Below are positions 57,850 through 64,000 of a stretch of DNA of 64,000 bases, piece after piece; the stretch's first letter is position 1, and each line of letters starts with the position of its first letter. A program made the position numbers and the translations under genes. The notes beneath the pieces are model-generated. The model was not told the origin of the DNA and did no database searches. It saw only the letters and a program-made list of their open reading frames with translations. Source of the DNA: Deltaproteobacteria bacterium (GTDB lineage Bacteria; Desulfobacterota; Syntrophia; Syntrophales; Smithellaceae); assembly GCA_012729055.1 (NCBI GenBank), contig JAAYDW010000053.1:20159-84158 (forward strand), in the 5' to 3' direction.

Positions 57850-60321
57850 ATGACAAGAGATTTTTTCGAGGAGCTCCTGGCCGGCTCTGAAAAGCCCAGC
57901 CGCTACATCGGCACAGAAGTCAACGCCGTACGCAAGGAAAACGCCGCTGTGCGCTTCGCGCTGGCGTTTCCGGACACGTATGAAGTGGGCATGTCGCATC
58001 TGGGCTTGCAGATTCTCTACGCCGTGCTCAACGCCCTTCCCGGCGTCTCCGCCGAACGGTGCTTCGCCCCCTGGCCCGACCGGGAGCGCGAGCTGCGTCT
58101 CCGCGGTCTTCCGCTGACGTCGCTGGAATCCGCAAAACCGCTTGCGGATTTTGACCTTGTCGGCTTTTCTCTGCAGTACGAACTATCCTACACCAACGTC
58201 CTCACGATGCTGGATTTGGCGGGCCTTCCGCTTCGGGCCGCCGACCGGTCGGAAGGCCATCCCCTGATCATCGCGGGCGGTCCCTGCGCCTTCAATCCCG
58301 CGCCGCTTAGCGCTTTTATCGACGCTTTCGTGATCGGCGAGGGAGAAGAAGCCGTGGAAGAAATCGCCGCGGCCGTGGCGGCGGGCAAAAGTAAAAACGC
58401 GACAAGAGACGCCCTGCTGGCCGCGCTGGCGGACATCGCGGGCGTTTATGTGCCCTCCCGGCACGGCCGAACCGTCATCCGCAAGAGAAAGCCGGTCGAT
58501 CTCAACCTCTGGCGTCATCCGGTCGCGCCGGTCGTGCCGCTCATGCAGACCGTCCACGACCGGATCGTTCTCGAAATCGCCCGGGGCTGCACGCGGGGCT
58601 GCCGGTTTTGCCAGGCCGGCATGCTCTGGCGCCCTTACCGCGAAAGAAACGCGACACTGGCAGCCGACATGGCAAGCGAGGCGCTTGGGTCTACCGGACA
58701 CGATGAGGTCTCGCTTCTGGCGCTGAGCTCCGGAGACTACAGCTGCATCGAGCCGCTCATCCAAAACCTCATGTCGAAGCACTCCGGCGAAAGGGTCGCG
58801 CTGGCGCTGCCGTCTTTGCGCGTGGAGTCCCTGAGCCGGACGCTGATCGAAGAAATCAAGCGCACACGCAAAACCAGCTTCACCCTGGCGCCGGAGGCCG
58901 GAACGGACAAGATGCGCCGGATCATCAACAAGGGCAATACGGCGCAGGATCTGCTGACTTCCGTCGACCGGATCTTTGACGCCGGATGGAAATCCATCAA
59001 GCTGTACTTCATGATCGGTCTGCCCGGGGAAGAAGAAAGCGATCTGGACGGCATTGTCGATCTGGCCTACGAGGCGCTCAGGGCGGCCCGGCGCCGCGGC
59101 CAGGTTACCGTCAGCCTTTCGACCTTCGTGCCCAAACCCCACACGCCTTTTCAATGGGAAGGGCAGCTCTCGCTCGACGAAACTTACGCCCGCCAGCAGT
59201 ACATCCGGCGGCGCATGAACAACCGCCATCTGGCCGTCAAGTGGCACGATGCGCGGATGAGCCTGCTCGAAGGCTTGTTTTCCCGCGGCGATGCAACCGC
59301 AGGCGAACTCCTGCTTGCCGCCTGGCGGAAGGGCTGCCGCTTCGACGGCTGGAGCGAAATCCTGCGCTTTGACCTCTGGCAGGACGCCCTGCAGGAGGCG
59401 GGTATTTCCGTCGAAACCTGTCTGGGCGCGCGAGGACCGGCCGAGTCCCTCCCCTGGGACAACATCGACTGCGGCGTCCGCCGGGAATTTCTGCTGGCGG
59501 AAAGGCAAAAGGCCTTCGCGGACGAAGCCACGCCGGACTGCCGCTACGCGGCCTGCCAGGACTGCGGCGTCTGCAACTTCACCGAAATACAGAATATTTT
59601 TTCAACCGGCGATTTTCCCGCGCCCCAGCCGAACGTCCAGCCGCCGGCTTCGCTTCGCCGCGAAAAAGTGTACCGTCTGCGCTTCACCAAAACCGGCCGC
59701 GCGCGCTTTCTCTCGCATCTGGAACTGGCGCTCGCCATGACGCGCGCCCTGCGCCGCAGTTCCCTTGCGCTTTGCTATTCGGCGGGCTTTCACCCGCATC
59801 CGAAAATCTCTTTTGCCACCGCCACTCCGGTGGGTATGGAAAGCCGCGAGGAATATCTGGACGTCACCGCCCTGAAACATCCGGGCGATCCCGCGGCGCT
59901 GAAAAACGAAATCAACGCCGCCCTGCCCGACGGCATGGCCGTCACGGATTTGCAAGCTCTGCCGTTTGTCGCAAGCGAGCTTTCCCGGGCGCTTTACGGT
60001 TTCGACTACGAACTGTGGCTGCCCGATCGGACGGACGAAGAGCAGGTGAAAGCCATGGCCTGCCGCATCGAAAAGTTTCTGGCCGCCGGCTCGTTTCCCA
60101 TTACCCGCCAGGCCAAGGGGAAAACCGTCAGGCGCGACATCCGGCCTTTCGTTGAGCATCTGGCGTTGCTTCCCGCGGAGAAAAAAGCGACCATGACGCT
60201 CCTGCACGCCCAGAACGGCGCTGCCCGTCCGCTCGATATTCTCGAACACGTCCTGGGCGTCGCTGCCGACGAAATGAAAAACGTACGGATTCTCAAAACC
60301 AGAACGCTGCTTGCCCGATAA
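57850..60321 (+). CDS. Fused radical SAM (TIGR03960-type) and DUF2344 protein
   Basis: This 823-residue protein has three parts. A B12-binding-like N-terminal segment covers about 1-200 (FALAFPDTYEVGMSHLGLQ). A radical SAM core follows (IARGCTRGCRFCQAGMLWRP, the C-x3-C-x2-C cluster). From about residue 605 there is a DUF2344 domain (LRFTKTGRARFLSHLELALA and CYSAGFHPHPKISFATATPV). The two modules are separate genes in many Clostridia, where they sit near rng and rplU; here neither follows. The reaction is unknown, although context elsewhere suggests tRNA/rRNA modification. Confidence 0.93.
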   Translation: MTRDFFEELLAGSEKPSRYIGTEVNAVRKENAAVRFALAFPDTYEVGMSHLGLQILYAVLNALPGVSAERCFAPWPDRERELRLRGLPLTSLESAKPLADFDLVGFSLQYELSYTNVLTMLDLAGLPLRAADRSEGHPLIIAGGPCAFNPAPLSAFIDAFVIGEGEEAVEEIAAAVAAGKSKNATRDALLAALADIAGVYVPSRHGRTVIRKRKPVDLNLWRHPVAPVVPLMQTVHDRIVLEIARGCTRGCRFCQAGMLWRPYRERNATLAADMASEALGSTGHDEVSLLALSSGDYSCIEPLIQNLMSKHSGERVALALPSLRVESLSRTLIEEIKRTRKTSFTLAPEAGTDKMRRIINKGNTAQDLLTSVDRIFDAGWKSIKLYFMIGLPGEEESDLDGIVDLAYEALRAARRRGQVTVSLSTFVPKPHTPFQWEGQLSLDETYARQQYIRRRMNNRHLAVKWHDARMSLLEGLFSRGDATAGELLLAAWRKGCRFDGWSEILRFDLWQDALQEAGISVETCLGARGPAESLPWDNIDCGVRREFLLAERQKAFADEATPDCRYAACQDCGVCNFTEIQNIFSTGDFPAPQPNVQPPASLRREKVYRLRFTKTGRARFLSHLELALAMTRALRRSSLALCYSAGFHPHPKISFATATPVGMESREEYLDVTALKHPGDPAALKNEINAALPDGMAVTDLQALPFVASELSRALYGFDYELWLPDRTDEEQVKAMACRIEKFLAAGSFPITRQAKGKTVRRDIRPFVEHLALLPAEKKATMTLLHAQNGAARPLDILEHVLGVAADEMKNVRILKTRTLLAR

Positions 60322-62220: not shown

Positions 62221-62255
62221 AAAAGGCCCGGGGATGTTCTCCGGGCCTTTCCTTT
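62221..62255 (+). terminator. Terminator after the second acyl-CoA ligase
   Basis: GGCCCGGGGA (62225-62234) pairs with TCTCCGGGCC (62238-62247), with one G-T pair and loop TGT. It is followed by TTTCCTTTTG and preceded by AAAA. Confidence 0.85.
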
Positions 62256-62315: not shown

Positions 62316-62344
62316 TTGACTTCACAAAACTCCTCTTTTATAGT
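62316..62344 (+). promoter_or_regulatory. Strong sigma-70 promoter of the Cys-rich exported protein gene
   Basis: TTGACT (62316-62321), a 17-nt spacer and TATAGT (62339-62344). The leader is about 70 nt. Confidence 0.75.
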
Positions 62345-62421
62345 TGCGCCGGAAGCATGCAGGAAAGCGCATCCACGACATTTCGCCGTAAAAAATGATT
62401 ATTTCCGCAAGAGGAGGAACT

Positions 62422-62685
62422 ATGAAAAAAATCATGATCGTCGTCACGCTGCTTGCGCTTGTGTGTTTCCCGGTATGGGCCCAAAACTCTTGTGACAGTT
62501 CCTGCAACGCCAAATGCAAAGGCCAGCAGGCCACTTTCACCGCCTGCTACTCAAGCTGCAAAAGCACCTGTGTCGCCCAGAAAACGGGCAATGCCGCTCA
62601 GGACAAGGCCAACACCTGTCAGAACAAATGCTCCGGACAGGGCGCCAACTTCCAGAGCTGCTACAACAGCTGCCTGAAAAACTAA
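62422..62685 (+). CDS. Small exported protein with duplicated twin-CX3C motif (87 aa)
   Basis: This 87-residue protein has a signal peptide (MKKIMIVVTLLALVCFPVWA) and a mature part of about 67 residues with ten Cys. Two repeats share the exact spacing C-x3-C-x9-C-x3-C: CNAKCKGQQATFTACYSSC and CQNKCSGQGANFQSCYNSC. An extra CDSS half precedes repeat 1. Such spacing would give disulfide-bonded helical hairpins or metal sites in the periplasm. The start is ATG 62422 with AGAGGAGGAAC upstream. I know no bacterial family name for it. Confidence 0.8.
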   Translation: MKKIMIVVTLLALVCFPVWAQNSCDSSCNAKCKGQQATFTACYSSCKSTCVAQKTGNAAQDKANTCQNKCSGQGANFQSCYNSCLKN

Positions 62686-62801
62686 GTCGTTTTCTGTCGG
62701 AGAAAGCGGCGCTCGTCAGTAAGCCACTTCAAAAACGCAAACGAAGACAACGGTTGAAGTGGGATCGCCCGACTGAACCAAGGATTGACTGGATACAAGC
62801 G

Positions 62802-63305
62802 ATGGCCATTTTTCATCCCTTGCGCAGATTCGAACAGGGAGGCTTTACGGCGCTCGACGTGATCCTTGTCCTCGTGATCATCGGCATCGCCGCCGCCGTG
62901 GGCGTGTCGAGGAGCGTTTCCAGAACAACATTTGACCTGGCGACCGAAGCCGAAACGCTCAAGACCCATCTGCGCTATGTCCAGTACCGGTCGATGAGAG
63001 ACGCCTTGGCGCCGGGGCAGACGCTGACCTGGGGGCTGAGATTCAATGCCGGCTCCTACGATCTTCTGTACGACAATGACGCAACGTCCCGCCGTCTGCC
63101 CAACGAAGACAGCCCCTCCCATACGCTTGCCAGAGGCATCACGATGACATCCAGCCTGGCGGGCAGCGTCCTGCACTTCAACGAATGGGGAAACCCCGTC
63201 GGGACTGACGCGGTTCCCCTGACGGCGGACGTTTTAATCACCCTGACCGACGGATCGGCTTCGCAGACGGTCCGCGTCACGCAAAACACGGGATTTATTC
63301 CATGA
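62802..63305 (+). CDS. Type IV pilin-like pseudopilin (GspH/FimT-like)
   Basis: A protein of about 167 residues. The prepilin signature is GGFTALDVILVLVIIGIAAA, with the cleavage Gly before Phe and a hydrophobic helix; the usual Glu+5 is replaced by Asp. The rest has a GspH-like C-terminal beta domain. ATG 62802 has only a weak site (GGAT); the track start at 62514 overlaps the Cys-rich gene. It overlaps the next pseudopilin gene by 4 nt (ATGA), marking an operon. Confidence 0.85.
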   Translation: MAIFHPLRRFEQGGFTALDVILVLVIIGIAAAVGVSRSVSRTTFDLATEAETLKTHLRYVQYRSMRDALAPGQTLTWGLRFNAGSYDLLYDNDATSRRLPNEDSPSHTLARGITMTSSLAGSVLHFNEWGNPVGTDAVPLTADVLITLTDGSASQTVRVTQNTGFIP

Positions 63306-63724
63306 ACAGACCGACTGCTGTCCAAAACGGATTTTCGCTTATCGAAATCATCGTCGCACTGACTGTTCTGGCCGTCCTGGGAGTCCTGGTTTTCCGGTAT
63401 TTGGGAACGCCGCTGACCGGCGGCACAGACTTGTTTTCCCTGTTTGACGACTCTCTGACCCTCGAACGGATCGGCGAAAACATTACCGCCGATTACAGGC
63501 ATAATTTCTCCACCGGCAGCCTCGCCGGGTTGAAAACGAAAATCGGCGAAGAAGGCACGGCGAAAACGAATGATTACGGCAGCTATGCGGTCGTCGAAAA
63601 CAGATACATCACTTTTATCAACAACGTGGAAGACAACGCGCCGCTAAATCAACAAAATACGCTGAAAGTCACGATTAAAAACGACCGCAACAAAACGCTC
63701 ACCATGGTTTTTGTTCAGTTTTGA
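63302..63724 (+). CDS. Type IV pilin-like pseudopilin
   Basis: A 140-residue protein with an N-methylation motif, NGFSLIEIIVALTVLAVLG (Gly-1, Phe+1, Glu+5). It is followed by a mixed globular domain typical of minor pseudopilins. Translation is coupled to the gene before it (ATGA overlap). It should be processed by PilD and inserted in a pilus or pseudopilus tip. Whether the cluster is type IV pilus or type II secretion cannot be decided from this window. Confidence 0.88.
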   Translation: MNRPTAVQNGFSLIEIIVALTVLAVLGVLVFRYLGTPLTGGTDLFSLFDDSLTLERIGENITADYRHNFSTGSLAGLKTKIGEEGTAKTNDYGSYAVVENRYITFINNVEDNAPLNQQNTLKVTIKNDRNKTLTMVFVQF

Positions 63725-63735
63725 AAGGACGCCGC

Positions 63736-64000
63736 ATGACGACACGGACAAACAGAGGCTTTACGCTGATCGAAGTTCTGGTCTCGATCGTCCTCGCGGC
63801 GATTCTGGCCGTCGGCGTCGGGCTGGGCGTGGCGCGGCTTGTGGAAGGACATCTCTTTGTCAAAACAAACGCCGCCGCGCTTCAGAAGGGACAGATGGCC
63901 GCAACCCGCATCGCCCTGGAGTTGAAAAACACTGTCGCCATTTTGCCGGCCTCAAACGCAACCGGCGTTGTCTTTAATTCTTTCAAGGATAAAGTCGAAA
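63736..64000 (+). CDS. Type IV pilin-like pseudopilin, 3' truncated by window
   Basis: It is not in the ORF track because it runs off the end. From ATG 63736 (GAAAGGACGCCGC upstream) the frame is open to 64000, 88 codons. The motif RGFTLIEVLVSIVLAAILA is a canonical prepilin cleavage site with Glu+5. It starts 11 nt after the preceding pseudopilin gene, so the operon continues beyond the window. Confidence 0.88.
   Translation, partial: MTTRTNRGFTLIEVLVSIVLAAILAVGVGLGVARLVEGHLFVKTNAAALQKGQMAATRIALELKNTVAILPASNATGVVFNSFKDKVE

What the first reader, a model, noticed from the sequence alone, without database searches (positions are those of the whole stretch)
62422..62685. Exported mini-protein built from two C-x3-C-x9-C-x3-C repeats
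Ten Cys in about 67 mature residues are arranged in two copies with identical spacing, a pattern reminiscent of the twin CX3C/CX9C helical hairpins of mitochondrial intermembrane-space proteins. It has a signal peptide and a near-consensus promoter, so it may be abundant in the periplasm. The internal duplication points to a modular metal-binding or disulfide-locked fold.
Basis: partly seen in the sequence, partly recalled or inferred. Interest (0 to 1): 0.65.

Follow-up and report, generated by a model that had tools for sequence, protein, structure and literature searches.

The report
Exported cysteine-laddered double-hairpin mini-protein
A small, rare, secreted bacterial protein carries ten cysteines spaced so symmetrically that they most likely lock it into two helical hairpins, like plant defence peptides and some animal venom peptides; it is a real gene with only one known relative, and its job in the cell is not known.

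Summary
Window 62422-62685 (+) encodes 87 aa: a Sec signal peptide and about 67 mature residues with ten Cys spaced 3,3,9,3,3,15,3,9,3. It contains two CX3CX9CX3C units whose non-Cys residues also match, so it is an internal duplication.

The gene is real. One orthologue (63% identical, same genus) keeps every Cys and every spacing, changes fall mostly at third codon positions, and DNA similarity stops at the ORF. Nothing else was found in 155 class and 395 phylum genomes, or in plasmids, phages, PDB, Pfam or NCBIfam. Neighbours are not conserved.

AlphaFold2 (mature form, pLDDT 86) gives helix-turn-helix at both units. The best reading is a cystine-stapled helical-hairpin scaffold of the alpha-hairpinin (CS-alpha/alpha) kind, probably oxidised by a VKOR-DsbA-like fusion present in this genome. 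This is analogy of fold, not shown homology. The mitochondrial comparison fits small Tims (twin CX3C) better than twin CX9C. Cu(I)-thiolate binding is the main rival. The biological role is only weakly inferred: an accessory secreted binding or antagonism module.

The parts
62222..62250 (+). intrinsic terminator-like hairpin ending the upstream acyl-CoA ligase transcript
   Evidence: 13-pair stem followed by a T-rich tail
62316..62344 (+). sigma-70-like promoter, TTGACT-N17-TATAGT
   Evidence: 10/12 consensus match. The orthologue also has a 10/12 site (TTGAAA-N18-TAAAAT) ending 57 nt before its ATG. Consensus match only.
62411..62418 (+). ribosome-binding site (GAGGAGGA)
   Evidence: direct reading; the orthologue has AAGGAGGAA before its ATG
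62422..62685 (+). complete ORF of the Cys-rich exported mini-protein (87 aa)
   Evidence: orthologue at G015:C303:8929-9189, 63% identity, all Cys conserved
62422..62481 (+). Sec signal peptide, residues 1-20 (MKKIMIVVTLLALVCFPVWA|QNS)
   Evidence: direct reading: KK, hydrophobic core, V-x-A site; conserved in the orthologue. C15 is not in a lipobox (V at -1).
62491..62571 (+). unit 1: six-Cys hairpin CX3CX3CX9CX3CX3C (C24-C50); proposed rungs C24-C50, C28-C46, C32-C42
   Evidence: AF2 helices at mature 2-12 and 19-49 with a loop at 13-18. The disulfide pairing is inferred.
62617..62673 (+). unit 2: four-Cys hairpin CX3CX9CX3C (C66-C84); proposed rungs C66-C84, C70-C80
   Evidence: AF2 helix break at mature 50-53, C-terminal helix 54-66. 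The disulfide pairing is inferred.

Best explanation
It is an exported, cationic, very polar mini-protein made of two cystine-stapled alpha-helical hairpins. The first has three stacked disulfides (6C unit) and the second has two (4C unit); they arose by internal duplication. After Sec export and signal-peptide cleavage, the VKOR-DsbA-like fusion and DsbA-like proteins of this bacterium oxidise the Cys in nested order (first with last). The disulfide ladder replaces a hydrophobic core and holds the helices antiparallel. The result is a rigid, protease-resistant scaffold whose variable outer faces bind something, most likely as an accessory secreted or envelope factor such as an antagonism or binding peptide. 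Shown: the gene, its conservation, the spacing and the duplication. Predicted: the helices and the VKOR-DsbA-like fusion. Inferred: disulfide state and pairing. Weakly inferred (about 25%): the biological role.
For: Spacing is symmetric about each turn and uses all ten Cys. All Cys and spacings are kept in an orthologue that differs at 37% of all positions. AF2 of the mature form gives pLDDT 85.9 and helix-turn-helix at both units. The 6C and 4C motifs match the published alpha-hairpinin motif definitions (CX3CX3CX4-20CX3CX3C and CX3CX4-20CX3C; PMC11591084); in that family Cys pair first with last and precursors can be modular (PMC7191063). Only 6-9% of residues are VILMFW, so there is little core other than Cys; pI is about 8.7, net charge about +4 to +5. 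A diverged VKOR-DsbA-like fusion and an exported Thioredoxin_4 protein are present in the genome; a VKOR-DsbA fusion from an anaerobe complements E. coli dsb mutants (PMC12453122).
Against: No disulfide was measured. The alignment behind the AF2 models has two rows and pTM is 0.48, so helix packing is uncertain. AF2 joins helix 2 and helix 3 into one long helix, and Foldseek finds no PDB match. The VKOR part of the fusion is below the Pfam cut-off (11.7 against 27.5 bits). In about 362 kb of sampled genome, exported proteins show no excess of even Cys counts (8 even, 17 odd; crude gene and signal prediction), so disulfides are not clearly common here.
Confidence: 0.62

Rival explanations
1. 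Metal-thiolate protein: the ten Cys stay reduced in the anaerobic periplasm and line the inside of a short helical bundle that binds Cu(I) or another soft metal, as in copper storage proteins (Csp), for storage or detoxification.
For: CXXXC pairs on helices supply Cu(I) sites in Csp3, and exported Csp1/Csp2 exist (PMC5171941). Four Cys-bearing helical segments are predicted. No even-Cys excess was seen among sampled exported proteins. A VKOR-DsbA-like protein is found only below the Pfam VKOR cut-off.
Against: Exactly even, symmetric Cys spacing about each turn; no His or Met in the mature window protein; Csp four-helix bundles are larger and carry up to 18-19 Cys (size from memory); no Csp or DUF326 match at E=10; no metal-resistance gene beside either copy.
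Confidence: 0.2
2. Precursor of a ribosomal peptide whose Cys are modified by a radical-SAM enzyme (the weak TIGR04114 Cys-rich repeat match).
For: TIGR04114 matches at E=0.014 (window protein) and 0.009 (orthologue), both below the curated cut-off. A radical-SAM-like ORF (57850-60321) lies upstream, beyond the acyl-CoA ligase.
Against: The match covers only 9 residues of a CxxxC-type repeat. The peptide has a Sec signal. No radical-SAM maturase lies beside the orthologue. The upstream ORF looks like the broadly conserved radical-SAM/DUF2344 type (recognised by eye).
Confidence: 0.04
3. A component or cargo of the pseudopilin (type II secretion or type IV pilus-like) cluster that starts 117 bp downstream.
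For: Same strand, no terminator found in between; two downstream ORFs have prepilin-like N termini, and one matches Pfam N_methyl.
Against: The orthologue has no pilin gene nearby; the next gene is convergent and unrelated. Pseudopilin-like genes occur in many genus members that lack the Cys gene.
Confidence: 0.07

Closest known systems
Plant alpha-hairpinins (4C and 6C Cys-motif peptides)
   Same: Same Cys-motifs (CX3CX4-20CX3C and CX3CX3CX4-20CX3CX3C), exported, cationic, modular precursors known; helix-turn-helix predicted here
   Different: Bacterial; a 6C and a 4C unit in one short protein; no sequence homology shown; disulfides and activity untested
kappa-KTx CS-alpha/alpha venom peptides
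   Same: Two CX3C helices joined by a turn, Cys1-Cys4 and Cys2-Cys3 pairing (PMC11722136, PMC7191063)
   Different: Single short hairpin in animal venoms; only the pattern was compared, no sequences fetched; no relation implied
Mitochondrial small Tim proteins (twin CX3C) and CHCH twin-CX9C proteins
   Same: Small, Cys-paired helical hairpins acting in an envelope compartment (PMC3759932)
   Different: No Pfam match; x9 here spans the turn, so the CX9C likeness is superficial; two hairpins per chain; different export route
Bacterial copper storage proteins (Csp)
   Same: CXXXC pairs on helices; exported members exist (PMC5171941)
   Different: Csp bundles are larger with many free Cys in the core; no profile match here
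Tandem Cys-rich lipoproteins in the same phylum (L048, three paralogues)
   Same: One carries a clean CX3CX3CX9CX3CX3C unit and another carries CX3CX6CX3C units
   Different: About 250-residue lipoproteins with a CarboxypepD_reg/SpaA-like domain; likely convergent

Membership tests
alpha-hairpinin (CS-alpha/alpha) | 4C or 6C Cys motif with CX3C arms and an X4-20 turn | tested here: met
   unit 1 is 6C with X9, unit 2 is 4C with X9; definition in PMC11591084
alpha-hairpinin (CS-alpha/alpha) | two antiparallel helices joined by a loop | tested here: inconclusive
   AF2 pLDDT 85.9 with helix-loop-helix at both units, but pTM 0.48 and a two-row alignment
alpha-hairpinin (CS-alpha/alpha) | Cys1-Cys4 and Cys2-Cys3 disulfides | not testable with these tools
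   needs mass spectrometry or a structure
alpha-hairpinin (CS-alpha/alpha) | plant origin, common ancestry or shared sequence | tested here: not met
   bacterial genome; no PDB sequence match at E=10 with phmmer and no Foldseek match
mitochondrial twin CX9C / CHCH, small Tim, UCR hinge | profile match to the Pfam families | tested here: not met
   none listed at E up to 10; bc1 hinge in the PDB at E=0.9 only
Csp copper storage protein | profile match to the family | tested here: not met
   no Csp or DUF326 hit in Pfam or NCBIfam
Csp copper storage protein | Cu(I) binding by reduced Cys | not testable with these tools
   needs purified protein
TIGR04114 radical-SAM target repeat | score above the curated cut-off and a cognate maturase nearby | tested here: not met
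   15.8 and 16.4 bits against a cut-off of 20; no maturase beside the orthologue

The most novel reading that the evidence does not exclude
Bacteria independently evolved tandem alpha-hairpinin-like, disulfide-laddered secreted peptides, and this one is an antagonism or signalling peptide made by an anaerobe through a diverged VKOR-DsbA pathway.
Probability: 0.15. Interest if true: 0.65.

Novelty: new variant of a known kind. Interest (0 to 1): 0.38.

Why it matters
The CX3C-turn-CX3C hairpin is known here from plant defence peptides, venoms and mitochondrial chaperones. A bacterial tandem 6C+4C version would point to convergent use of this minimal scaffold, and would be a compact natural substrate for testing whether VKOR-DsbA-type anaerobes make disulfides at all. 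If it binds metal instead, it would be an unusually small exported Cys-rich metal binder.

Tried and rejected
Spurious ORF: rejected by the orthologue, codon-position differences 26/18/52, and similarity that ends at the ORF. Other weak search hits (L002, L004-L010, L013, L015-L017, L050): frames lack the Cys pattern, contain stops, or match only a signal peptide; L011 is another exported Cys protein of different pattern. A 6C DNA-pattern scan of 395 phylum genomes hit 49 genomes, mostly low-complexity or noncoding frames. Of the matches held as loci, only L048 and the orthologue (plus the window itself) have a clean in-frame unit without extra Cys; some unlisted or unfetched matches were not checked. 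Viral contigs, phages, plasmids, PADLOC and PHROGs: no relative. Rfam: nothing above gathering score near the gene. dS could not be computed (saturated). The whole genome was not available as a file, so Cys parity was tested on sampled stretches only. No paper describing a bacterial alpha-hairpinin-like protein was found in the held library.

Full report
What is there. Window 62422-62685 (+) reads MKKIMIVVTLLALVCFPVWA|QNSCDSSCNAKCKGQQATFTACYSSCKSTCVAQKTGNAAQDKANTCQNKCSGQGANFQSCYNSCLKN. The mature part has ten Cys with spacings 3,3,9,3,3,15,3,9,3. C24 and C50 extend the first copy to a symmetric six-Cys unit, so a 6C and a 4C unit use every mature Cys. The repeat goes beyond Cys: CxxKCxGQxAxFxxCYxSC is shared by both halves (7 non-Cys identities; 5 of 20,000 shuffles reach that, 0 of 20,000 for the orthologue).

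It is a gene. The only relative found is in another species of the same genus (G015; record title: uncultured delta proteobacterium), 63% identical, with all Cys and spacings unchanged. Differences fall 26/18/52 on codon positions 1/2/3. DNA similarity covers the ORF and stops there. Both copies have a ribosome-binding site and a 10/12 promoter-like match upstream; the promoter evidence is weak because it is a consensus match only.

It is rare and has no fixed neighbours. Two of 155 class genomes have it, and no further one was found in 395 phylum genomes (the other hit, L050, matches by its signal peptide). In close relatives the orthologous acyl-CoA ligase (81-88% identical) is followed by a DinB-type gene, or by an amidase-like gene and then DinB, not by this gene. 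In G015 the gene sits on another contig (C303, while the ligase is on C404) next to unrelated genes. At 63% identity beside 88% for the ligase, the protein evolves fast except for its Cys and turn residues. This fits an accessory secreted protein.

Fold. AF2 on the mature pair gives pLDDT 85.9 with helices at mature residues 2-12, 19-49 and 54-66; the full-length model is poorer (72.4). Helix breaks fall between the two CX3C arms of each unit. The CX3CXnCX3C hairpin with nested disulfides is the alpha-hairpinin / CS-alpha/alpha scaffold. Foldseek finds no PDB match, which is not unusual for a short helical model but leaves the packing unproven.

Can this bacterium make disulfides? Pfam DsbB and VKOR searches of the genome are negative. 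However, L086 is a membrane protein with a VKOR-like N-terminal part (CX3C, CPFC; Pfam VKOR 11.7 bits, NCBIfam VKOR E=0.0016) fused to a Thioredoxin_4 domain, and L085 is an exported Thioredoxin_4 protein. A VKOR-DsbA fusion from a Clostridium works in E. coli. Against this, sampled exported proteins show no even-Cys excess (crude and small). I therefore favour disulfides at about 0.62 and keep metal thiolates at 0.2.

Comparison. By Cys motif it works like an alpha-hairpinin, but ancestry is not shown and the plant-family criterion is not met. The mitochondrial analogy is better made with twin-CX3C small Tims than with twin CX9C. A phylum-mate carries a clean 6C unit inside unrelated lipoproteins (L048), which suggests that the spacing has been reached more than once.

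Verdict. A genuine, rare, fast-evolving exported mini-protein with a tidy Cys architecture; the fold is plausible, the function unknown. Moderately interesting.

Noticed in passing
L051 1495-2085 (G000:C4, about 60.6-61.2 kb): DsbA-like (PF01323, FrnE-like, no signal peptide) ORF with an in-frame TGA at the first position of its CXXC motif (FSDYV[TGA]PFC): a probable UxxC selenoprotein, a kind already listed for DsbA-like proteins in PMC9312934.
   Followed up: partly
L086 1405-2433 (G000:C26, about 31 kb): Diverged VKOR-DsbA-like fusion that the Pfam VKOR cut-off misses; probably the disulfide oxidase of this genome.
   Followed up: partly
L085 248-2551 (G000:C29, about 9.9 kb): Exported Thioredoxin_4 (CPPC) protein between an arsenite-permease-like (ACR3-like, by eye) gene and a Thioredoxin_3 gene.
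   Followed up: no
L048 1398-4130 (G357:C86): Three tandem lipoprotein paralogues with a CarboxypepD_reg/SpaA-like domain followed by Cys-rich CX3C hairpin-like modules; looks like a fast-diversifying surface family.
   Followed up: partly
window 62802-64000: Run of prepilin-like ORFs (pseudopilins) that continues to the end of the contig.
   Followed up: no
window 62514-63305: The first pilin-like frame is open upstream through the Cys gene in another frame (263-aa ORF from 62514); the true start is probably near 62802.
   Followed up: no
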